Shown in pieces: positions 44,782-55,296 of a stretch of 64,000 bases of DNA (positions are counted from its first letter, which is position 1; each line of letters starts with the position of its first letter). Location: the NCBI GenBank assembly GCA_903888515.1, contig CAISTY010000060.1, positions 1-64,000 on the forward strand, read 5' to 3'. The DNA is from Akkermansiaceae bacterium (GTDB lineage: Bacteria; Verrucomicrobiota; Verrucomicrobiia; Verrucomicrobiales; Akkermansiaceae). The notes under the pieces were generated by a model. That model made no database searches. It saw only the letters and a program-made list of their open reading frames with translations, and was not told where the DNA came from. The position numbers and the translations under genes are program-made.

Positions 44782-45279
44782 ATGATGAAGGATGAATGCG
44801 TCACTATAGATATATTGGCAGAGTTGGCTGTGGCCGACGATATGATGAAAAAATGGCCGAAGGAAAAGTTGCTACCGGCATTGGGGTTTCCGGCGGCAGC
44901 GACGCACAACATGTGCAATTGGCATTGGAAGGACAAAGACTCCGTCACTCTGGAGGAAATCTTTGAACTCGTCATCTCCAGCGACAAGGATCCACGACCG
45001 GGATACCTTATATGCAGAATGCTCGATTTCCGTCATTTCGGTAAAAAGGGGTTTTTTGCCATCGTGCACCGCCTTTCAAATGTGAATCTTGGAGAAAAAT
45101 GCAACTCGTTTTGGAAAGCGAAACATCAATTGTTTCTGGATGCACACAGAGTGAAGGGCCTTGGCCCTTGTAATTGGTCGATTCCAATTACTGAAGAAGG
45201 AAAACTGTTGGCCCGCTTTAAAAACGGGGCTCTGTATTTGCCAAAACACCGGGGGAAAACGGGTATCGGGCGGGATTGA
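44782..45279 (+). CDS. Hypothetical protein, convergent with hsdR
   Basis: 165-aa ORF in a locally lower-GC segment. Confidence 0.5.
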   Translation: MMKDECVTIDILAELAVADDMMKKWPKEKLLPALGFPAAATHNMCNWHWKDKDSVTLEEIFELVISSDKDPRPGYLICRMLDFRHFGKKGFFAIVHRLSNVNLGEKCNSFWKAKHQLFLDAHRVKGLGPCNWSIPITEEGKLLARFKNGALYLPKHRGKTGIGRD

Positions 45280-45283
45280 TTTC

Positions 45284-48200
45284 CTATTCTTCGTAGGTCA
45301 TCCCGAAAACCGTATCTGTTAGCCAGCCGCGGAAGGATTCGTTATCTTGGAACTGCTTGAAGAGCTGGGCATCGTCGGTGAAGAGAGCGGTGATGACGCG
45401 CTTGAGTGCCTTGTCGTGCTCAATGCGTGCGTTCTGGCGGTCTGAGTTTTTCTTCGCGTTCTGGTAGGCCTGGTCCTCGGATACCTTTTGGGGGATCTCT
45501 CCGGTGATGCGTTTCTCCATCCGTGTCGGATCGGAGAAGAGACCGCCGAACTGGTCGTTGAACGCTTTCACGATGTTCGAGAGCTTGTCCATCTCCGGCT
45601 CCGGCTTGCGCCCACCGCCTGACGTCGGCACCGGTTCGATTTCGGCGTCGGCATCCGGCAGAGCGATGGCCATGGTCGCCTTCTTCTCGGCGCGGTAGCT
45701 GTCCATGTCGATGGCCTCCAGAATGCCTTTTGCTAGATCTTCCTCGATCGGGGCGGGCAGCTTTGGGATGAGGAAGTTCAGGAAGATTGAGAGCTTCTCC
45801 CAGTCCTGCACGCCATACGGCAGGATGGTGGCGAGGAAGTCGTAGGTGCGGGTGAATGCCTTGGCCTTGCCTTTGAAATCCACCTGCCCGTCTTCGTCGA
45901 GGTCGCTCACATAAACGGCCACGCAGGCGTCAAGGATCGGGTCGAGCTTGTCCCGGTCGGCTCCGCCCAGATAGAGTTTCACGAGCGCATCGATCTGCAC
46001 CGGCGAATAGACCTGATACTTGTCCAACTCTGCCTTGAGCGTGTGGAGCTTGTTAGGGTCGGTCTCCTTGCTGAGGATCGTGGTGCGGTAGTAGTCGGCA
46101 AAGGCCTCCTCGATGGTTGTGGTGTCGTTCTGGAAATCGAGGACGAAGACATCGTGCTTCTTCGGGTGTGCCCGGTTCAGGCGGGAGAGCGTTTGCACGG
46201 CTTTGATGCCGCTCAGCACCTTGTCCACATACATCGTGTGCAGCAGCGGTTCGTCGTAGCCGGTTTGGAACTTGTCCGCGCAGATTAGGAAACGATACGG
46301 GTCTTCCTGAATCCGGTCGGCGATGTCGTTGCTAGAAAACCCGTTGAGCTTGGATTCGCTCACCTTGTCGCCCTTGTATTCCGGTTCGCCGGCGAACGCG
46401 ACGATGGGCCGGTATGGGCTTTTGATCTCCTTGAGATAGGCGTTGAAGGCGACGAAGTATTCAATCGCCCGCTGGATGCTGCCGGTCACCACCATGGCAC
46501 GCGCCTGTCCGCCGATTTTGTTCTGGCCGATGACCTGTTCGAGGAAGTGGTCCACCATGATCTCCGCCTTGTCGCGGATGGCCTTGCTGTGGCTCTCCAC
46601 ATAGACGCGCAGCTTCTTGCGGGCCTTCTTCACATCAAACTCGGGATCGCCTTCGACGGTCTTGGCGAGGCGGTAGTAACTCTCCACCGGCGTGTAGTTC
46701 TTGAGCACGTCGAGGATGAACCCCTCCTGGATGGCCTGCTTCATCGTGTAGGGATGGAAGGGGTGGTGTTTCACCTCGCCACCGTCCTGATAGGCGACAC
46801 CGAAGATCTCCAGGGTCTTGTTCTTCGGGGTGGCGGTGAAGGCGAAGTAGCTGGCGTTCGGCAACAGCTTCCGGGTTTCTATGATCCGGTTGATCTTGTC
46901 CTCGGTGGTTTCGTCATCGTCCGGTTCATCGCCTTCGGCCAGCGCCATGCTCATGGCGGCGGAAGTGCGCCCGCCCTGGCTGGAGTGGGCTTCGTCGATG
47001 ATGATGGCGTATTTTTTGCCCCGGTGCGTCTCGCCGATGCTGTCGAGCACATGGGGAAACGTCTGCACTGTGGAAATGATGAGCTTCTTGCCGTCCTTGA
47101 GAAACTTGGTGAGCTGCTCGGTCTTCGATTTGCCGGAACCTTCTTTCACCGCGCCGATGATGCTGCCCACCTGGGCGAATCCCTTGATGGTTTCCCGCAA
47201 TTGTCTGTCGAGCAAACGGCGGTCGGTGATGACGATGATCGAGTCGAACACATCGGCACCGTCCTTGCGCAGGCTGATCAACTGATGGGCCAGCCACGCG
47301 ATGGAATTCGACTTGCCGCTGCCCGCCGAGTGCTGGACGAGATAGACCTTGCCCGCCCCGTACTCCAGCACATCCGCGATCAAGCGCCGCACGACATCCA
47401 GTTGGTGATAGCGCGGGAAAATCTGCACCTGTTTCTTTTTGCCGGTCTTGGGATTCACCTCCTCCACGATCTGGGCATAGTTCTCCAAAATTTCCGTTAG
47501 CCGTGCCGGGGTGAGGATCTGTTTCCACAGATAGTCAGTCTTAATGCCATTTTCGTTAGGTGGATTGCCCGCGCCATCGTTCCAGCCCTGATTGAATGGC
47601 AGGAACCACGAGTCCTTCGCCATGCCCTTCGTTCCTTTGAGGGCGGTGCACATCATCACCTCGTGATCATCCACCGCAAAATGCACCAGACAGCGGCCAA
47701 ACTGAAACAAGGTTTCGCGGGGATCGCGGTCGCGCTTGTATTGCTCCACCGCATCCTCGACCGTTTGCTTGGTCAGGCTGTTCTTCAGTTCGAAGGTGAT
47801 CAGCGGCAGACCGTTGATGAAGGCGCACAGGTCCAATGAGCGCTTCGTCTGCTCCCGGCTGAAGTGCAGTTGCCGCGTGATGCTGAAGCGGTTCTTCGCA
47901 TGGCGCTCCACCGCTTTTTTGTTTTCCGCCGAGGGCTTGCCGTAAAACAAGTCAAAGCTCAGCGCCCCGTGCTTGATGCCCTTTCGCAGCACCTCGATCA
48001 CGCCGCGCCGCGTGATCTCCCCTTGCAGGCGCGCGAGGAACTTCTGTCGCGCCATGCCTTTCTTGTCCCTGTAATCCGCGATGCCCAGCTTCGCCCATTC
48101 CTCCGGCTGTGTGGCGATGAGAAACGTGAAGAGCTGCTCGCTATCCACGGCATACTCCCGGTCATACGCTGTGGGGCCGCCCGCGAACCACCCGCTGCCG

Positions 48201-48313
48201 TCCTTGGAGGGCGCAACCTCCGCCACTCCTCCCGCCGCGGTGAAGCCATCCGTCCCGGCCATGTGGCGCATGATCAGGCTTTCGAGGCCTTTTTCGCTGG
48301 TGTCTGTGGGCAT
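45284..48313 (-). CDS. hsdR: Type I restriction enzyme R subunit
   Basis: HSAGSGKSNSIAWLAHQL (Walker A), IIIDEAHSSQGG (DEAH), LPLITFELKNSLT nuclease-domain motif, FAFTATPKNKTLEIFG. Confidence 0.95.
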   Translation of the reverse strand: MPTDTSEKGLESLIMRHMAGTDGFTAAGGVAEVAPSKDGSGWFAGGPTAYDREYAVDSEQLFTFLIATQPEEWAKLGIADYRDKKGMARQKFLARLQGEITRRGVIEVLRKGIKHGALSFDLFYGKPSAENKKAVERHAKNRFSITRQLHFSREQTKRSLDLCAFINGLPLITFELKNSLTKQTVEDAVEQYKRDRDPRETLFQFGRCLVHFAVDDHEVMMCTALKGTKGMAKDSWFLPFNQGWNDGAGNPPNENGIKTDYLWKQILTPARLTEILENYAQIVEEVNPKTGKKKQVQIFPRYHQLDVVRRLIADVLEYGAGKVYLVQHSAGSGKSNSIAWLAHQLISLRKDGADVFDSIIVITDRRLLDRQLRETIKGFAQVGSIIGAVKEGSGKSKTEQLTKFLKDGKKLIISTVQTFPHVLDSIGETHRGKKYAIIIDEAHSSQGGRTSAAMSMALAEGDEPDDDETTEDKINRIIETRKLLPNASYFAFTATPKNKTLEIFGVAYQDGGEVKHHPFHPYTMKQAIQEGFILDVLKNYTPVESYYRLAKTVEGDPEFDVKKARKKLRVYVESHSKAIRDKAEIMVDHFLEQVIGQNKIGGQARAMVVTGSIQRAIEYFVAFNAYLKEIKSPYRPIVAFAGEPEYKGDKVSESKLNGFSSNDIADRIQEDPYRFLICADKFQTGYDEPLLHTMYVDKVLSGIKAVQTLSRLNRAHPKKHDVFVLDFQNDTTTIEEAFADYYRTTILSKETDPNKLHTLKAELDKYQVYSPVQIDALVKLYLGGADRDKLDPILDACVAVYVSDLDEDGQVDFKGKAKAFTRTYDFLATILPYGVQDWEKLSIFLNFLIPKLPAPIEEDLAKGILEAIDMDSYRAEKKATMAIALPDADAEIEPVPTSGGGRKPEPEMDKLSNIVKAFNDQFGGLFSDPTRMEKRITGEIPQKVSEDQAYQNAKKNSDRQNARIEHDKALKRVITALFTDDAQLFKQFQDNESFRGWLTDTVFGMTYEE

Positions 48314-48317
48314 GGCG

Positions 48318-48917
48318 TTAGAGTTTGTTATTCAGCACCTTCGTCATCCTCGAAAAGGCAGACAATGAACTGAGCGCGGTAGGGTTAAGGACGCCAATGA
48401 CTTCAAAGGAGCGTTTCCCCTTGGCGTAGGCGTTGGAACAATTCCGCGTCGCATGCGCGAGCTTGTCATGAACGTCGTGGCGGTTGCGGCTCTCCAGATC
48501 GTTCAAAGGGGGCAAGGCATTCTCTTGAAGCGTGTGCCCGTAATGTTCTTTCAACGCGGCACGGTCTGCGACGATCCACGTTTCCATGCATGTTGTCATG
48601 AGGAGAACCTGCTCATCGGCCGCTCCGGCGGGCTTATCCCAATTGTCCCGAGTCTTGAGATGCTCCCATGTTTTATCGACGTCTGCCACGGGGTCTTCAC
48701 TGTCCACCAGCATGGCAATGTAGTCGCCTTGCTTGCTTTGGCCATGGGCGGTTTTGAAATCGTCGAACGCGGAGTTGCGTCCACCACACGCACTGAGTCG
48801 GGGCATCCTCTTGTATGTAGCAAAACCCAACTTCCCGATCAGATTTCGGAAGCCTTCCCGGCAGCGCACCTGATCCTCTTTGGATTCCGCCCCTTCGATG
48901 TAGAGATGCGCACTCAC
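48318..48917 (-). CDS. DUF4276 family protein
   Basis: SAHLYIEGAESK, SACGGRNSAFDDFK, IAMLVDSEDPV, VLLMTTCMETWIVADRAAL. A GTG start at 48917 overlaps the upstream stop (GTGA). Confidence 0.8.
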   Translation of the reverse strand: MSAHLYIEGAESKEDQVRCREGFRNLIGKLGFATYKRMPRLSACGGRNSAFDDFKTAHGQSKQGDYIAMLVDSEDPVADVDKTWEHLKTRDNWDKPAGAADEQVLLMTTCMETWIVADRAALKEHYGHTLQENALPPLNDLESRNRHDVHDKLAHATRNCSNAYAKGKRSFEVIGVLNPTALSSLSAFSRMTKVLNNKL

Positions 48918-50101
48918 CAGCGGGTTCCTCCCAGTTGTCCCTGAATCCAAAGCTGCCCTAGGCGGTATTTCTCCAGCCACACCGCCAACTCGGATGCCGA
49001 GAGCCGTGTCATCTCCGTCTGGCCCTTATGTTTTTCGCAGACTACCACGGATTCCGGGCAATCTGTCATCGCATCCACCAGAATGTCAGAGTGCGTCGTC
49101 ACGATGATCTGGGTCTGTTCAGATGCGGACTTCAGCAAGTCCGCAACGGTCGGAAGAATGTCCGGATGCAATCCCAGTTCCGGCTCCTCGATGCAGATGA
49201 GTGGCGGCGGCTCGGGGTCGCAAAGAATTGCCAGAAGGCAGAGGAAGCGCAAGGTCCCATCTGATAGCCGGGTCGCAGGAATGACAAAGTCCCCCTCCGT
49301 GAAAAACACCTGCACGCTTCCACCCTCGGCCACAACCTCGAAGTCCGTTAGTCCGTCATACAGTTTTCTCAAATTCTCGATGATCGCCTTCTTGGCTTTC
49401 GGCGTTTTCCGCAGCTTGCTGAGAAACAAACCCAGGTTGGAAAAATCATCCTCAAGGAAATTGTTGCGCATGTCCGCTTGCTGAGGTTCGCGGAAGACGG
49501 CACTGCGTCCGAACGCCCATTCTCGATAGATGCGCACCTTTTCGTAGTTTTGAGAAAGCGATGCCAATTCGGCAAAGGAGGACGGATCAAACAGCTGGCC
49601 TACTATGGAACAGTCCGGCCGAACCAGCGCCTCTGATACAGATCTCTCGGCACCCGTCGCCGTGAGAACCATCGGCTTTCCGTCCTTCAGTCCGTGATAG
49701 TAGGATATAGCATCGCCTCCCCAAGGAGGTTCGATGGATTCTGTCACCCGCTCATCCACCAATTTGAAACGCTGTGCCTCAGAACGAAACTCGATCACGT
49801 GTCGCAGTGGGATTTCGCTGTGCGGGTGTTCGATCACCACGTCCACAGAAGCCACTCCCTTAGGGTCACCTTTCCAAATCCATTCCGTTACGCCGCCGCC
49901 CTTGCGGGTCACATCCGCAAAATCCTTTGGCGCGGCACGCAGCAGGCTGATCGCTTCGATGAGATTCGATTTGCCGCTGCCGTTGGGGCCGATGAAAACA
50001 TTGAGCGCCACGAGGTCGATGCCGTTGTTCTCCGACCCGAAGGATAGAAAATTCCTCGGTTTCAAATGATGGATCAGGATGGAGCCGGTGGGTTCTGTCA
50101 T
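48914..50101 (-). CDS. RecF/OLD-like AAA ATPase (AAA_21)
   Basis: LVALNVFIGPNGSGKSNLIEAISLL; LSDGTLRFLCLLAIL signature-like; ICIEEPELGLHPDILPTVADLLKSASEQTQIIVTTHSDILVD. Confidence 0.9.
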   Translation of the reverse strand: MTEPTGSILIHHLKPRNFLSFGSENNGIDLVALNVFIGPNGSGKSNLIEAISLLRAAPKDFADVTRKGGGVTEWIWKGDPKGVASVDVVIEHPHSEIPLRHVIEFRSEAQRFKLVDERVTESIEPPWGGDAISYYHGLKDGKPMVLTATGAERSVSEALVRPDCSIVGQLFDPSSFAELASLSQNYEKVRIYREWAFGRSAVFREPQQADMRNNFLEDDFSNLGLFLSKLRKTPKAKKAIIENLRKLYDGLTDFEVVAEGGSVQVFFTEGDFVIPATRLSDGTLRFLCLLAILCDPEPPPLICIEEPELGLHPDILPTVADLLKSASEQTQIIVTTHSDILVDAMTDCPESVVVCEKHKGQTEMTRLSASELAVWLEKYRLGQLWIQGQLGGTRW

Positions 50102-50104
50102 GGT

Positions 50105-51508
50105 TCAATTCTCCTCGGGTTCAGTTTTATCCAAAATCTCCCCTTCGTCGAGCACGTCGGCGCTCAATTCAGCGGCGGCGGTGGGTAGTTCCGGCAGCTC
50201 GGCGGCGGCTTCGCGCGCGTCCAGCTTGCCCGTCACAATGTCGGTGGTCAGACGCGTGCGGTATTCCTGCATCAGCGCGATTTCCCGCTCAGTGCGGGCA
50301 ATGGCGGTGGTGAGGTCTGCCGATTGCTCCTCGATTCCTTTAAGGATGGAATCCTGCTCTTCGCGAGGTGGCAGCGGAATATGGATCGCGCCGAACCTGT
50401 CGTTATAGAGACGCATGAATCCCGACGTGCCGGTGCCCAAACCTTTTGATTCCGAACGGAATTTCACTCGCAGCGTCCGGCTCCGGAATAGCTCACCAAG
50501 GTAATCGACGTTCACATCCGCTATCGGGTCGAAGACTGCATAATCCGGACTCACAAGGCCGGTGATGCTGAGGCACGATGGGAAAATGACTCCGTTGCCC
50601 GCTTGCATTCGGTTCACAACGAACTGCCGCGGTCTGACAATCTTGAAGCCGACCAGTGTTGCTGCTTGAGGCGGGCGGGTGAAGTGTTCAGAAAACACGA
50701 CGAGGCCGTGATGCATTCGCATTGAGAGCAACGGTTCCAATCCTGTCGTGGACCGATGATCCACTTCGCGAAGTAGATACTTGATCCGCTTCGCCTCCCA
50801 ATGCTTCGGAATATCCCCGAGCCAGGGGATGCCGGAGGGTTTGAGGGGGACGTCGGGATGGAGGCCGCGGGTGACGGCGCGGTGGATGATGGCCTGCTTC
50901 TGCTCGTTGAGCAGCCCGATGAGCTTGCGCTTGGCGCGGATGAAGCCGTCGATCTTGCGGTTCGCGTGGTCCAGAAACCGCACGATGGCCGCTTGTTCGT
51001 CGGGCGGCGGGAGCACTGAGCCGATGACTTTGAAATGTTCGGGACGTAGGCTCCACATGTCCGACGTGATGCCGTATGACCAGCGCTCCGCCTCCTTTGC
51101 AAATGACGGCGTGCGGTAGAGGTGGTGATAAAATAACGCGTTCGCTTCCGTTCTCGGGCGCATCACCACATAGGCGGGGCTGATGATGCCGCGCAGACTC
51201 GAAGCGCCCAGTGCTCCCTGCCATGCCCGCATCTTGTTGTAGGCGATGTCGTGGGGCTGAACGAGTTTGTAGGCTCCTTTGTTGAGGTTTGAGCTGTCCT
51301 TCTTCGACGAGCCATCGAGCAGCACTTTCTGGCGAACGATTCCCCGCGTGATCGTTACGGATAGCATTTCCTCCTTCGGATGATTGCGGTCTTTGACCTC
51401 ATCGAAGAGCGCACGGTTCGGCAGGACAGACCAATGTTTGGGAACGCTTCCAAGCCAGCGATGCCCCGACTCCTTGTATTGCGCATACGGCTTGAGGCCT
51501 TCTATCAT
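50105..51508 (-). CDS. hsdS: Type I restriction enzyme S subunit
   Basis: WLGSVPKHWSVLPNRALF and WLGDIPKHWEAKRIKYLL duplicated target-recognition domain starts; PPPDEQAAIVRFLDH and PPREEQDSILKGI conserved motifs. Confidence 0.93.
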   Translation of the reverse strand: MIEGLKPYAQYKESGHRWLGSVPKHWSVLPNRALFDEVKDRNHPKEEMLSVTITRGIVRQKVLLDGSSKKDSSNLNKGAYKLVQPHDIAYNKMRAWQGALGASSLRGIISPAYVVMRPRTEANALFYHHLYRTPSFAKEAERWSYGITSDMWSLRPEHFKVIGSVLPPPDEQAAIVRFLDHANRKIDGFIRAKRKLIGLLNEQKQAIIHRAVTRGLHPDVPLKPSGIPWLGDIPKHWEAKRIKYLLREVDHRSTTGLEPLLSMRMHHGLVVFSEHFTRPPQAATLVGFKIVRPRQFVVNRMQAGNGVIFPSCLSITGLVSPDYAVFDPIADVNVDYLGELFRSRTLRVKFRSESKGLGTGTSGFMRLYNDRFGAIHIPLPPREEQDSILKGIEEQSADLTTAIARTEREIALMQEYRTRLTTDIVTGKLDAREAAAELPELPTAAAELSADVLDEGEILDKTEPEEN

Positions 51509-51526
51509 TTCCGGCCTCCTTTCTGC

Positions 51527-51738
51527 GCCCCAACGGGGCAGTGCCATGCCAGCCCAGGGCAACGCCCTGGGTCAACGGTGTTAGATGATTCAAGCCCTGT
51601 AAGGGCGGACCAAATCGCCCGTACCACCGAACGCCGTCCGCGTCGCCGGTTAGGCCGCCCTTTCAGGGCTTGCATGGTGTGTTTGGCGTCAAACCCAGGG
51701 CGTTGCCCTGGGCTGGCATGAGGTCGCCCCGTTGGGGC
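51527..51738. repeat. 212-bp nested inverted-repeat element in the DUF1016-hsdS gap
   Basis: 46-bp arms 51527-51572 / 51693-51738 (GCCCCAACGGGGC...CCAGCCCAGGGCAACGCCCTGGGT); inner 18-bp arms 51591-51608 / 51655-51672. Confidence 0.9.
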
Positions 51739-51808
51739 TTTGAAGAGATGGCTCATGGCGTGGCTCCTTTCGCGATTTCGTGCGCGGGCTGTGAGGCACA
51801 TCGCCGGC

Positions 51809-51860
51809 TCGATTCGTGACGCGCTGCGTCACAAATCGAAATTAGACGCAATGAGTCTAA
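51809..51860. other. Two consecutive hairpin-forming palindromes
   Basis: TCGATTCGTGACGC-GCT-GCGTCACAAATCGA (51809-51839) and TTAGAC-N7-GTCTAA (51842-51860). Confidence 0.6.
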
Positions 51861-51871
51861 ATTCGGAGATT

Positions 51872-52969
51872 TCATGGCAGTTTCGTCCTCCGTGCTGGCT
51901 TTGATGTTTCCGGCTCCTTCTCGTTGTCCTCCGGCGGGGCACAGAGTTGATAGAACTCATGGAGTTTGGCACGGAGCAGGTTTTTGTCAGGCAGCATGGT
52001 TTCATACTCGGCGATCATGGCCGGGGAGAGGGATCGGCTGAGGCAATACTCGACGACTTCCGCATCCTTGGTGGCGCAGAGGAGAAGACCGATGGCGGGG
52101 TTTTCGTGGGCCTTGCGGTGGTCGCGGTCGAGCGCTTCGAGATAGAAGTTGAGCTTGCCGAGATCCTCCGGGCGAAACTCGCGGATCTTGAGTTCGATGG
52201 CAACAAGGCAGTTCATGGCACGGTGGAAGAACAACAAGTCGAGCGCGAAATCCTGCCCGCCGACCTGCACCGGGTGTTGGGAGCCGACGAAGCAGAAGTC
52301 GCGCCCCAACTCAGTGATGAAGCGGCCCAGATTGCGCAGCAGTGCGCCGTGGAGGTCGGCTTCGGAGTGCTCGGAGGGCAGGCCGAGGAATTCGAGGGAG
52401 TAGATGTCTTTGAAGATGTTGAGCGCCTCTGGGTGAGATTCTCTCACCAGTGGCGAGACTTTTATGGGATGGAGGACGGTGCGCTCGAAACGGGCGGTTC
52501 GGAGTTGGCGTTCGAGTTCCCGGCTGGACCACTTTTCCCGGATGGCCAAACGGACGTAAAACTCGCGTTCCTCATCCATCTTGGCGCGGCTCAGGATGGC
52601 CAAATGATGAGTCCACGGCAATTGTCTCAGCAGTGCCGAGACAATTGCGTCATTTCTGTAAGCCTCGTAAAACTGGCGCATTCTGAACAGATTGGGCCGG
52701 GTAAATCCCCTGAGGCCCGGCTGCGTTCGGGCTAGGAAGCGTGCCAGATCATCGACCACCTTATCGCCCCACTCGGCGGACTCCAGCTTGCGGCTGATGT
52801 ATTCGCCCACCTGCCAGTAAAGCGTGACCAGTTCGGTATTGACCGCCTGATACGCCCGCTGTTTGGCGGATTGGATGAGTTCGAGCACCTCGGTGAAGGC
52901 GCTCTCCTCTGCAACCTGCGGCGATAGTCGCACCGGTGGTGCGACAATTTGGTTCTTCTCCTTCTTCAC
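51872..52969 (-). CDS. DUF1016/YhcG-family PDDEXK nuclease domain protein
   Basis: YWQVGEYISRKLESAEWGDKVVDDLARFL, GFTRPNLFRMRQFYEAY, FVGSQHPVQVGGQDFALDLLFFHRAMNCLVAIELKI (nuclease core). Confidence 0.92.
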   Translation of the reverse strand: MKKEKNQIVAPPVRLSPQVAEESAFTEVLELIQSAKQRAYQAVNTELVTLYWQVGEYISRKLESAEWGDKVVDDLARFLARTQPGLRGFTRPNLFRMRQFYEAYRNDAIVSALLRQLPWTHHLAILSRAKMDEEREFYVRLAIREKWSSRELERQLRTARFERTVLHPIKVSPLVRESHPEALNIFKDIYSLEFLGLPSEHSEADLHGALLRNLGRFITELGRDFCFVGSQHPVQVGGQDFALDLLFFHRAMNCLVAIELKIREFRPEDLGKLNFYLEALDRDHRKAHENPAIGLLLCATKDAEVVEYCLSRSLSPAMIAEYETMLPDKNLLRAKLHEFYQLCAPPEDNEKEPETSKPARRTKLP

Positions 52970-55296
52970 GTCCTGGTTCCTTTCGTGATTTCCTGGAGCA
53001 GGCCCTCGGTCTCCTGCTCCAGCGCGAGGATGTCGGCGCTGATCTGGGCGAGGGTGCGGAGTTGGGGCGGCTGATAGAAATGACGGGTGAAGCTGACTTC
53101 ATAGCCGATCTTGGTATCGGCCTCGACGAGCCAGGCGTCGGGCGTGTAGGGCAGAACTTCGCGGCGGATGAATGCCTCGATGCCGCCTTCCTCCAGCAGC
53201 GGGATTTGCTCGTAGTCGCGCAGTTCGCTGTCGGGCTCGTATTCGACAATCGTCGGACGGCCCGGCGGTCCGTCCCTACCTTCGTAAAGGCCGCGAAGCG
53301 GGTCGGGCTTCAATTTGCCCGGTTTGTGGATTTTCTTGATGACGGGCGGGGCGTTCTCGTCGCGCCAACTCACGGCATTGACGATGAGCTTGTGGTCGGA
53401 GGCGGAGAGTTTGATGCCGAGGGTTGTCAGGGCATCGGAGAGTTTTCCGAGGAAGATGTTGTGATCCTCGAAGAGGTCACCGCCGAGTTCCACACGGAGC
53501 CGGGTGGCGGTCTCGACGAGGAAGGCGTCGCGCTTCCAGGTGTCCGCATCGAGGAGTTTCTTTTTCTTCTTATCCGGCAGGGACTTTTTCGCAGCGCCTT
53601 CATTTTCCTCATCGTCATCCCCGGTGTCTGCGCTGCCCCAATCATCAAGGAGTTTTTCCAGTTGCTTGCGGACGGATGCCGGTTTTTCAACAAGGGCGTC
53701 GCCGAGTTCGTCGTAGAGCACGGCACGGATTTCCTCATCGCCGGAAGCGAAGCGCAGGGACTCGATGCGCGGAAGGGTGAGCTGGCTGTGGAGGCGGAGC
53801 GGGCGCTCGACCTTCACCTTCCAATAACCGAAGGCGGCGTTCTGGAAGATCTTCGACTGTGGCGTTTCCTCGAAGGCGAGGAAGGTTTGGCAGATGCACT
53901 GGATGTCTTCGGCGGCGAGTTCGCAGTTCTTCTTGCCCATGTTCTTGCGCAGGGGCTTGAACCAGTGGGTGGCGTCGATGAGCTGCACCTTGCCTTGGCG
54001 CGGCCCGGCTTTGCGGTTGCTGAGCACCCAGACGTAGGTGGCGATGCCGGTGTTGTAAAACATGTTCAGCGGCAGGGCGACGATGGCCTCCAGCCAGTCG
54101 TTCTCGATGATCCAGCGGCGGATGTTGCTTTCGCCCTGGCCGGCATCCCCGGTGAAGAGGGAGGAACCGTTGTGGACTTCCGCGATGCGGCTGCCAAGCG
54201 GCGTGGCGTGCTTCATTTTGCTCAGCATGTTGGCCAGAAAGAGCATCTGGCCGTCGCTGGAGCGGGTGATGAGGGAGAGTTCCTCGCCATCGTGCATCAC
54301 GCGGAAGCGGGGATCGCGCAATTCCGCCTTGCCGCCCATGCGCTCAAGATCGCTTTTCCAGCTCTTGCCGTAGGGCGGATTGGCGAGCATGAAGTCGAAC
54401 TCGCGGGAGCGGAAGGCGTCGTTAGACAGCGTGGAGTGCTCCGGCCCGCCGACGATGTTGTCCGCCGCATCGCCATCGCCCTTGAGCAGGAGGTCGGCCT
54501 TGCAGATGGCGTAGGTCTCGCCGTTGATTTCCTGACCGTAAAGGTGGGTGGCCACCTCCTTGCCGTGGTCCTTGGCGATCTGCTTGAGGGTTTCCTCGGC
54601 CACGGTCAGCATGCCGCCGGTGCCGCAGGCGCAATCATAGAGCAGGTAGGTGCCGGACTCGATCTTGTCCGCCACGGGCAGGAACATCAAATTGGCCATG
54701 AGCCGGACGGCGTCGCGGGGCGTCCAGTGTTCGCCAGCCTCCTCGTTGTTGTCCTCGTTGAAGCGGCGGACCAGTTCCTCGAACATCGTGCCCATCGAGT
54801 GGTTGTCGAGGCCGGGGAGATCGCCGACCGGGTAGGGGCTGATGTTGATGTCCTTGTCGAGAAACTTCTCGATGAGCTGGCCGAGGGCGTCCGCCTTGGA
54901 GAGGCGCGGGATCTGATTGCGGAATTCGAAGTTGGTCAGGATGTCCTGCACGTTGGGGGAGAAACCATCGAGGTAGGCATCGAAGTCGTCCCGGAGCTTC
55001 TGCTGGGTGGCGCGGGACTTGAGGTCGCGGAGCAGGAACGGCGAGGTGTTGTAGAACGCCTGACCAGCCGCGGAGCGAAGTGCGTCGTCCTGATGGGTGA
55101 TCTGCTCCTTGTCGAGGGCGGCCTTCATTTCCATGACGGCCTGCTTCGTCGGCTCCAGCACGGCATCGAGGCGGCGCAGCACGGTCATCGGCAGGATGAC
55201 ATCCCGGTATTTGCCTCGGACGAAAACGTCGCGGAGGGTGTCGTCGGCGATGCCCCAAATGAAATTGGTGAGCCAGTTGAGTTGGGCTTGGTCCAT
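52966..55296 (-). CDS. hsdM: Type I restriction enzyme M subunit (N6-adenine methyltransferase)
   Basis: YDCACGTGGMLTVAEE, NPPYGKSW, GEHWTPRDAVRLMANL. Confidence 0.95.
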   Translation of the reverse strand: MDQAQLNWLTNFIWGIADDTLRDVFVRGKYRDVILPMTVLRRLDAVLEPTKQAVMEMKAALDKEQITHQDDALRSAAGQAFYNTSPFLLRDLKSRATQQKLRDDFDAYLDGFSPNVQDILTNFEFRNQIPRLSKADALGQLIEKFLDKDINISPYPVGDLPGLDNHSMGTMFEELVRRFNEDNNEEAGEHWTPRDAVRLMANLMFLPVADKIESGTYLLYDCACGTGGMLTVAEETLKQIAKDHGKEVATHLYGQEINGETYAICKADLLLKGDGDAADNIVGGPEHSTLSNDAFRSREFDFMLANPPYGKSWKSDLERMGGKAELRDPRFRVMHDGEELSLITRSSDGQMLFLANMLSKMKHATPLGSRIAEVHNGSSLFTGDAGQGESNIRRWIIENDWLEAIVALPLNMFYNTGIATYVWVLSNRKAGPRQGKVQLIDATHWFKPLRKNMGKKNCELAAEDIQCICQTFLAFEETPQSKIFQNAAFGYWKVKVERPLRLHSQLTLPRIESLRFASGDEEIRAVLYDELGDALVEKPASVRKQLEKLLDDWGSADTGDDDEENEGAAKKSLPDKKKKKLLDADTWKRDAFLVETATRLRVELGGDLFEDHNIFLGKLSDALTTLGIKLSASDHKLIVNAVSWRDENAPPVIKKIHKPGKLKPDPLRGLYEGRDGPPGRPTIVEYEPDSELRDYEQIPLLEEGGIEAFIRREVLPYTPDAWLVEADTKIGYEVSFTRHFYQPPQLRTLAQISADILALEQETEGLLQEITKGTRT

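What the first reader, a model, noticed from the sequence alone, without database searches (positions are those of the whole stretch)
45284..55296. AAA-ATPase + DUF4276 pair and DUF1016 nuclease embedded in a type I RM operon
Gene order on one strand is hsdM, DUF1016 (PDDEXK), hsdS, AAA_21 ATPase, DUF4276, hsdR. The ATPase and DUF4276 genes are coupled through a GTGA overlap and sit 3-5 bp from hsdS and hsdR. ATPase plus small acidic-motif partner recalls RloA/B and PARIS (AriA/AriB) pairs, and PARIS guards against anti-restriction proteins. Hypothesis: this pair is a guard or effector that responds to inhibition of the RM complex.
Basis: partly seen in the sequence, partly recalled or inferred. 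Interest (0 to 1): 0.66.

Follow-up and report, generated by a model that had tools for sequence, protein, structure and literature searches.

The report
Defence gene pair inside restriction operon
A known but untested pair of bacterial genes (an ATP-driven sensor and a probable nucleic-acid-cutting partner) sits in a swappable cargo slot inside a DNA-restriction operon; it most likely defends against viruses on its own rather than acting as the restriction system's dedicated guard.

Summary
The gene order is as described. The minus-strand operon runs hsdM, DUF1016, hsdS, AAA_21 ATPase, DUF4276, hsdR, with all catalytic motifs intact. The pair is already catalogued: PADLOC HEC-01A/HEC-01B (E = 2e-161 and 1e-64), a candidate from the 2024 "guilt-by-embedding" survey; I found no published test of it.
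DUF4276 folds confidently with a Toprim-like order and invariant E8, D72, E74, E112 and D118. Its only significant structural match is an RloB-like protein; no solved structure matches.
The RM-guard hypothesis is not supported. Of 65 scorable relatives, 48 have no detectable hsd genes nearby, 8 of 30 such genomes lack a detectable HsdR, and in the same hsd family the hsdS-hsdR slot usually holds unrelated defence genes (DRT, DarTG, PD-Lambda-2-like). Yet hsd linkage is phylogenetically clustered.
New here: duplicated hsdS 3' tails and hsdR 5' heads mark joints between cargo units (L001, L003, L031, L044), and such remnants flank hsd-free pairs (L033, L021, L025). The slot appears to be loaded by homologous recombination through its flanks.
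Best reading: an autonomous PARIS/RloAB-like two-gene module carried as cargo.

The parts
52966..55296 (-). hsdM, type I methyltransferase subunit, 776 aa
   Evidence: Pfam N6_Mtase 2.9e-50, HsdM_N 1.3e-24; PADLOC MTase_I 8.8e-253; NPPYG motif in the translation
51872..52969 (-). DUF1016/YhcG PD-(D/E)XK protein (PDC-S02), 365 aa, cargo of the hsdM-hsdS slot
   Evidence: Pfam YhcG_C 2.8e-53, DUF1016_N 2.9e-44; PADLOC PDC-S02 3.4e-131; homologues in the M-S slot of L004, L022, L126 and in the S-R slot of L128
51527..51738 (.). palindromic repeat element between DUF1016 and hsdS: 46-bp arms (89%) with inner 26-bp arms (85%)
   Evidence: its 18-bp core also occurs on six other contigs of this genome
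50105..51508 (-). hsdS, specificity subunit, 467 aa (ATG behind AGGAGG)
   Evidence: Pfam Methylase_S 4.3e-5; PADLOC Specificity_I 3.2e-93; start read
48914..50101 (-). HEC-01A: AAA_21 / OLD-type ABC ATPase, 395 aa; Walker A 38-46, LSDG 279-282, Walker B EEPELGLHP 305-313, switch His 337
   Evidence: PADLOC HEC-01A 2.3e-161; Pfam AAA_21 1.8e-36; invariant motifs in 62 relatives; AF2 pLDDT 87.5, Foldseek matches SMC/Rad50/PtuA/OLD
48318..48917 (-). HEC-01B: DUF4276, RloB-like / Toprim-like probable nuclease, 199 aa, GTG start overlapping the ATPase stop (GTGA)
   Evidence: PADLOC HEC-01B 1e-64; Pfam DUF4276 2.6e-10; AF2 pLDDT 96.4; Foldseek RloB-like protein E=7.9e-4; invariant E8, D72, E74, E112, W114, D118
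45284..48313 (-). hsdR, restriction/translocase subunit, 1009 aa
   Evidence: Pfam HSDR_N 1.1e-19, SWI2_SNF2 3.7e-25, ResIII 4.7e-14; TIGR00348 hsdR 1.4e-59, below its curated cut-off

Best explanation
The ATPase-DUF4276 pair is an autonomous two-gene anti-phage module (HEC-01) that rides in the hsdS-hsdR cargo slot of an otherwise complete type I RM operon. Shown: identity of the genes, intact catalytic motifs, conserved pairing and coupling, existence of the pair without hsd genes nearby, replacement of the pair by unrelated defence modules in the same slot of close relatives, and hsdS-tail/hsdR-head remnants at cargo joints. Inferred: the ABC-type ATPase dimer senses infection and holds the DUF4276 protein inactive; on a trigger (unknown) it releases or activates DUF4276, a metal-dependent Toprim-like nuclease (E8, D72xE74, helped by E112/D118) that cuts nucleic acid, most likely RNA such as tRNA as AriB does, stopping phage growth at the cost of the cell. 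Cargo is exchanged by homologous recombination through the conserved hsdS 3' tail and hsdR 5' head. The module benefits from the operon's expression and transfer, not from a dedicated guard role.
For: Identity as HEC-01A/B. ATPase directly upstream in 64/64 relatives where both are visible, TGGTGA in 58/64, from Bacteria and Archaea. Catalytic positions invariant. DUF4276 model pLDDT 96.4 with b-a-b-a-b-a-b order, E8 just behind b1 and D72 at the end of b3; one significant structural match, an RloB-like protein; with bridging DUF4276 sequences hhalign aligns it to RloB at 83% probability, D72-x-E74 on RloB's D-x-D and E112-x-W114 on its F-E-x-W. 48 of 65 scorable relatives have no hsd gene detected; 27 of these have at least 4 kb on both sides; neighbours are mostly housekeeping genes; 8 of 30 such genomes have no HSDR_N hit, including L037, an assembly titled 'chromosome'. 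In pair-less hsd loci of the same phylum the S-R slot is filled in 14 of 18 scorable cases by other genes: DRT UG5, PD-Lambda-2_B, DarTG, DUF1016, dCTPase-like, AlbA_2. In the HsdR tree pair carriers interleave with carriers of other cargo (5 changes; L121 with DRT sits beside L007, 99 support). Scars at joints.
Against: No Foldseek match to any solved structure below E=0.001, so the Toprim assignment rests on topology, motifs and one viral model. Direct profile comparison without bridging sequences does not link DUF4276 to RloB. No activity of any HEC-01 pair could be found. hsd linkage is clustered on the ATPase tree (5 changes against a shuffled mean of 12.5) and the pair reaches hsdR with a constant 3-4 bp gap in seven carriers beside the window (L004, L005, L006, L007, L008, L010, L047), which a functional tie would also produce.
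Confidence: 0.66

Rival explanations
1. Guard of the RM complex: the pair senses inhibition or displacement of HsdMSR (for example by Ocr-type DNA mimics) and then kills or arrests the cell, as PARIS does when it senses Ocr.
For: Composition resembles PARIS (PADLOC AriA model matches the ATPase at 2.8e-36). hsd-linked pairs cluster on the ATPase tree across several phyla with a constant gap to hsdR. The same role has been proposed for OLD-ABC + Toprim modules in BREX loci (PMC12839542).
Against: Most relatives lack linked hsd genes; some of their genomes have no detectable HsdR. Close hsd relatives keep the slot but fill it with unrelated cargo or leave it empty. Pairs with intact catalytic residues remain where only hsd remnants are left (L021, L025). 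DUF4435 (AriB) is not the partner family.
Confidence: 0.14
2. Toxin-antitoxin-like addiction module that stabilises the RM operon: the ATPase restrains a toxic DUF4276 nuclease, and loss of the operon kills the cell.
For: The closest sibling locus L001 (about 96% DNA identity) keeps an intact ATPase but has a 77-bp deletion that takes out DUF4276's start region with E8, as expected if the effector is costly. AAA_21 is described in Pfam as a putative AbiEii toxin / type IV TA ATPase.
Against: Stand-alone pairs are common, so stabilising RM is not the general role. One deletion in one metagenome assembly is weak evidence. Addiction and phage defence are not exclusive.
Confidence: 0.12
3. A type IV-like or DNA-directed partner of restriction: the pair attacks modified or translocation-processed phage DNA, complementing RM as TgvAB does in Vibrio cholerae.
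For: TgvAB, a two-gene modification-dependent system embedded in a type I RM operon, protects without HsdR's activity (PMC11411939). OLD-type Toprim nucleases can cut DNA (general knowledge).
Against: No sequence relation of HEC-01 to GmrSD; no DNA-binding domain seen in either protein by Pfam.
Confidence: 0.08

Closest known systems
HEC-01 (PADLOC Hma-embedded candidate 01; Payne et al. 2024, bioRxiv 10.1101/2024.01.29.577857, known here only through citing papers)
   Same: Both genes match the HEC-01A and HEC-01B models over their whole length, adjacent and in order.
   Different: The name comes from embedding in helicase-methylase-ATPase loci; here and in 17 relatives the host is a type I RM operon, and most relatives have no defence genes beside them. 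No functional test found in the library.
PARIS (AriA/AriB)
   Same: ABC-type ATPase plus separately encoded small Toprim nuclease; AriA model matches the ATPase.
   Different: The partner is DUF4276, not DUF4435; no AriB hit in Pfam, PADLOC or PDB searches; no Ocr trigger tested.
RloA/RloB and other rlo/mlo genes of Campylobacter jejuni hsd loci
   Same: Intervening genes between hsdR-hsdS and hsdS-hsdM (PMC5183652); RloB related to OLD_TOPRIM by HHpred in PMC10440598; structural match of DUF4276 to an RloB-like protein.
   Different: DUF4276 does not match Pfam RloB; similarity needs bridging sequences.
Embedded DarTG2 (enteropathogenic E. coli) and TgvAB (V. cholerae) in type I RM operons
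   Same: Unrelated defence module inside an hsd operon, DarTG2 between hsdS and hsdR (PMC12255303; PMC11411939). DarTG also fills the S-R slot of L139 in this hsd family.
   Different: Different proteins and mechanisms.
OLD / Gabija / Septu ATPase families
   Same: ATPase fold and motifs.
   Different: No fused Toprim domain (OLD, GajA), no HNH partner (PtuB).

Membership tests
HEC-01 (PADLOC) | HEC-01A ATPase model matched over full length | tested here: met
   E=2.3e-161, residues 9-395 on 4-393/393
HEC-01 (PADLOC) | HEC-01B DUF4276 model matched, gene adjacent to HEC-01A | tested here: met
   E=1e-64, residues 2-198 on 3-199/202; GTGA overlap
HEC-01 (PADLOC) | Anti-phage activity | not testable with these tools
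   no paper found for HEC-01, DUF4276 or PF14103 that reports a test
PARIS | AriB-type DUF4435 Toprim nuclease | tested here: not met
   Pfam gives only DUF4276 for the partner; no PADLOC AriB hit
PARIS | AriA-type ATPase | tested here: inconclusive
   AriA PADLOC model hit 2.8e-36 but HEC-01A far better at 2.3e-161; AriA chains hit weakly in PDB
PARIS | Activation by anti-restriction proteins such as Ocr | not testable with these tools
   needs phage assays
RloAB | RloB (PF13707) partner | tested here: not met
   no RloB hit at E<=0.1
RloAB | RloB-like fold and motif order (E..., DxD, FExW) | tested here: inconclusive
   Foldseek RloB-like protein E=7.9e-4, TM 0.45; hhalign 83% only with bridging sequences, 31% over 11 columns without
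Toprim superfamily | b-a-b-a-b-a-b core with Glu behind b1 and D-x-D/E behind b3 | tested here: met
   AF2 model strands 3-7, 40-43, 66-72, 104-107 with helices between; E8 60/60, D72 61/61, E74 60/61.
Toprim superfamily | structural match to a solved Toprim domain | tested here: not met
   no PDB match with E<=0.001
OLD nucleases | ABC ATPase fused to a C-terminal Toprim domain | tested here: not met
   ATPase is 395 aa and ends after the ATPase domain
Type I RM system | HsdM, HsdS and HsdR in one operon with intact motifs | tested here: met

The most novel reading that the evidence does not exclude
The hsdS-hsdR (and hsdM-hsdS) junctions of this type I RM family are recombination platforms: the conserved hsdS 3' tail and hsdR 5' head act as homology arms through which defence cassettes such as HEC-01, DRT, DarTG and PD-Lambda-2-like genes are swapped or stacked, and cassettes that leave can carry the arms with them.
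Probability: 0.5. Interest if true: 0.66.

Novelty: new member of a known kind. Interest (0 to 1): 0.45.

Why it matters
Defence genes inside restriction operons are widely reported, but why they sit there is open: guard, regulator or passenger. This locus favours passenger: the same hsd backbone carries different defence cargo in close relatives, and the cargo exists without it. The repeated hsdS-tail and hsdR-head scars suggest a concrete and testable way in which RM operons collect and exchange defence modules. The pair itself is a widespread (Bacteria and Archaea) ATPase/Toprim-like system whose activity, as far as I could find, nobody has tested.

Tried and rejected
DUF4276 against solved structures by sequence, profile and fold gave nothing significant. 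Direct hhalign of DUF4276 with RloB or with the longer DUF4276 subgroup was weak; bridging sequences were needed. DUF4435 (AriB) was sought in 115 genomes of the phylum to build a comparison profile; none found. No relatives in plasmid, phage or viral-contig collections, so a plasmid or phage vehicle for the close family is not supported. No tRNA or composition anomaly marks an island. The ATPase and DUF4276 trees place some rows differently (for example L047, L055, L066), but I did not test this formally and make no claim of effector swapping. A complex of the two proteins could not be modelled, since only single chains were offered.
Full report
OBSERVATION. The operon is real and in the order given. 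On the minus strand: hsdM 55296-52966, DUF1016 52969-51872, hsdS 51508-50105, AAA_21 ATPase 50101-48914, DUF4276 48917-48318, hsdR 48313-45284. Distances: hsdM/DUF1016 4-bp overlap, hsdS/ATPase 3 bp, ATPase/DUF4276 GTGA overlap, DUF4276/hsdR 4 bp. DUF1016 and hsdS are 363 bp apart with a palindromic element between them. All three RM subunits keep their motifs.

WHAT THE PAIR IS. PADLOC names it directly: HEC-01A (E=2.3e-161) and HEC-01B (1e-64). HEC means Hma-embedded candidate, from Payne et al. 2024 (bioRxiv 10.1101/2024.01.29.577857), which I know only through papers that cite it. DUF1016 is PDC-S02 in the same database. So pairing and embedding are catalogued; I found no functional test of HEC-01 or of DUF4276 in the library.

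ATPASE. 395 aa, AAA_21/OLD-type ABC ATPase. Walker A, LSDG signature, EEPELGLHP Walker B and switch histidine are invariant or nearly so in 62 relatives. The model (pLDDT 87.5) matches SMC and Rad50 heads, PtuA and OLD. It has no fused nuclease.

DUF4276. 199 aa, model pLDDT 96.4. Strands and helices alternate b-a-b-a-b-a-b; E8 follows b1 and D72 ends b3, the places of the catalytic Glu and DxD in Toprim domains (family knowledge). E8 is kept in 60 of 60, D72 61/61, E74 60/61, E112 61/61, D118 61/61. No solved structure matches. The only significant match in the viral library is an RloB-like protein (E=7.9e-4, probability 1.00, TM 0.45). With five bridging DUF4276 sequences, hhalign pairs it with RloB at 83% and puts the acidic and E-x-W motifs in register; without them it does not. 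I call it Toprim-like and RloB-like, not proven Toprim.

CONSERVED PAIRING. 69 relatives were fetched from genomes of many phyla, including Archaea. In all 64 where both genes are visible the ATPase lies directly upstream; all 64 ATPases end in TGG and 58 have TGGTGA. The pair is an old unit. It was not found in plasmids, phages or viral contigs.

IS IT A GUARD OF RM? Of 65 scorable relatives, 17 have hsd genes nearby and 48 have none detected; 27 of the 48 have at least 4 kb of DNA on both sides. Detection used profiles of this hsd family, so unrelated RM types could be missed; L040 has a weak PglZ neighbour. Twenty neighbours of stand-alone pairs were scanned and are mostly ordinary genes (MutL, lactate utilisation, transporters, dehydrogenases). 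Of 30 genomes with stand-alone pairs, 8 have no HSDR_N match, among them L037, titled a chromosome; two (L051, L064) also lack N6_Mtase. The others are mostly draft genomes, so absence is not proof. An RM system is therefore probably not needed for the pair to be kept. On the other side, hsd linkage is clustered on the ATPase tree (5 changes, shuffled mean 12.5, 0 of 500 as low), with carriers in Verrucomicrobiota, Pseudomonadota, Acidobacteriota, Cyanobacteriota and Planctomycetota, so the association is long-lived.

THE CARGO SLOT. In 20 hsd loci of the same phylum without the pair, the hsdS-hsdR interval is occupied in 14 of 18 scorable cases and empty in 4. Contents differ: DRT UG5 reverse transcriptase (L121, L123), PD-Lambda-2_B (L124, L130, and a homologue in L132), DarTG (L139), DUF1016 (L128), a dCTPase-like protein (L137), AlbA_2 proteins (L123, L126). 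The hsdM-hsdS interval is a second slot; DUF1016 and the AlbA_2/HATPase gene occur in either. In the HsdR tree pair carriers and carriers of other cargo interleave (at least 5 changes, 4 forced; L121 with DRT beside L007 at 99 support). Similar arrangements are on record: rlo/mlo genes in Campylobacter, DarTG2 between hsdS and hsdR in EPEC, TgvAB in V. cholerae.

SCARS. Searching each locus with hsdS 3' tails (250 bp) and hsdR 5' heads (150 bp) shows extra copies at cargo joints. L003: a second hsdS tail (119 bp, 98%) right behind DUF4276, then PD-Lambda-2_B, then hsdR. L001: hsdS, a 275-aa gene, an hsdR-head remnant, a second hsdS tail (119 bp, 91%), then the pair. L044: an hsdR-head remnant (77 bp, 86%; only 19 bp against its own head), an hsdS-tail remnant (98 bp, 86%), then the pair. 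L031: a second tail between hsdS and the ATPase (92%), of which only 26 bp, inverted, was recovered when compared with its own tail, so this case is weaker. Among loci scored as hsd-free, tails are found only upstream (L033, L021; weak in L009, L032) and heads only downstream (L025, L021); the swapped control positions give none. L033 also has an hsdR-head remnant further downstream. Tandem tail-cargo-head units and footprints beside solitary pairs are what recombination through the flanking hsd ends would leave. This is my inference; I do not know of a report of it.

MECHANISM. Shown: composition, intact motifs, coupling, independence from linked hsd genes, cargo exchange. Inferred: the ATPase holds DUF4276 inactive and releases it on infection; DUF4276 cuts nucleic acid with metal ions. 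The nearest worked-out precedent is PARIS, where AriA releases the Toprim nuclease AriB to cut host tRNA (PMC12409363). The trigger and substrate here are unknown. Membership in PARIS is not claimed: the DUF4435 partner is absent. The guard idea in this form exists for BREX-linked OLD-ABC + Toprim modules (PMC12839542).

A NATURAL BREAK. In the sibling locus L001 (about 96% identical DNA) a 77-bp deletion just behind the DUF4276 start removes the E8 region and shifts the frame from that start, while the ATPase is intact. This fits a costly effector but is one metagenome assembly.

VERDICT. The pair is a new member of a known kind. The most interesting new element is the cassette-like slot with recombination scars.

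Noticed in passing
window 51527-51738: Large palindromic element (46-bp outer arms 89%, 26-bp inner arms 85%) between DUF1016 and hsdS; its 18-bp core also lies on six other contigs of this genome, while the reversed control pattern has no match.
   Followed up: partly
L001 7400-8806: Sibling locus with an altered second half of hsdS, an added 275-aa zinc-ribbon gene, an hsdR-head remnant and a second hsdS tail in front of the pair.
   Followed up: partly
L001 9994-10010: 77-bp deletion behind the DUF4276 start removes the region of the proposed catalytic Glu and breaks the frame, ATPase intact.
   Followed up: partly
L181 6657-8005 (own genome contig C185): A second, distant DUF4276 gene behind a 268-aa ATPase open frame that matches only the C-terminal part of the ATPase; possibly a decayed pair.
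   Followed up: partly
L128 3240-4274; L123 3416-4879; L006 4722-6632: DUF1016 and AlbA_2/HATPase genes occur in the hsdM-hsdS slot of some loci and the hsdS-hsdR slot of others.
   Followed up: no
L055 1769-5846: A pair of the hsd-linked ATPase clade sits between a CCG-domain gene and a LutB-like LUD/ferredoxin gene, apparently inserted in a lactate-utilisation operon.
   Followed up: no
L122 9193-12885; L123 9595-13302: A protein of about 1230 aa with SF1-type helicase domains fills the hsdM-hsdS slot of two loci.
   Followed up: no
window 44782-45279: 165-aa open reading frame on the plus strand, convergent with hsdR and ending 4 bp from its stop; not identified.
   Followed up: no
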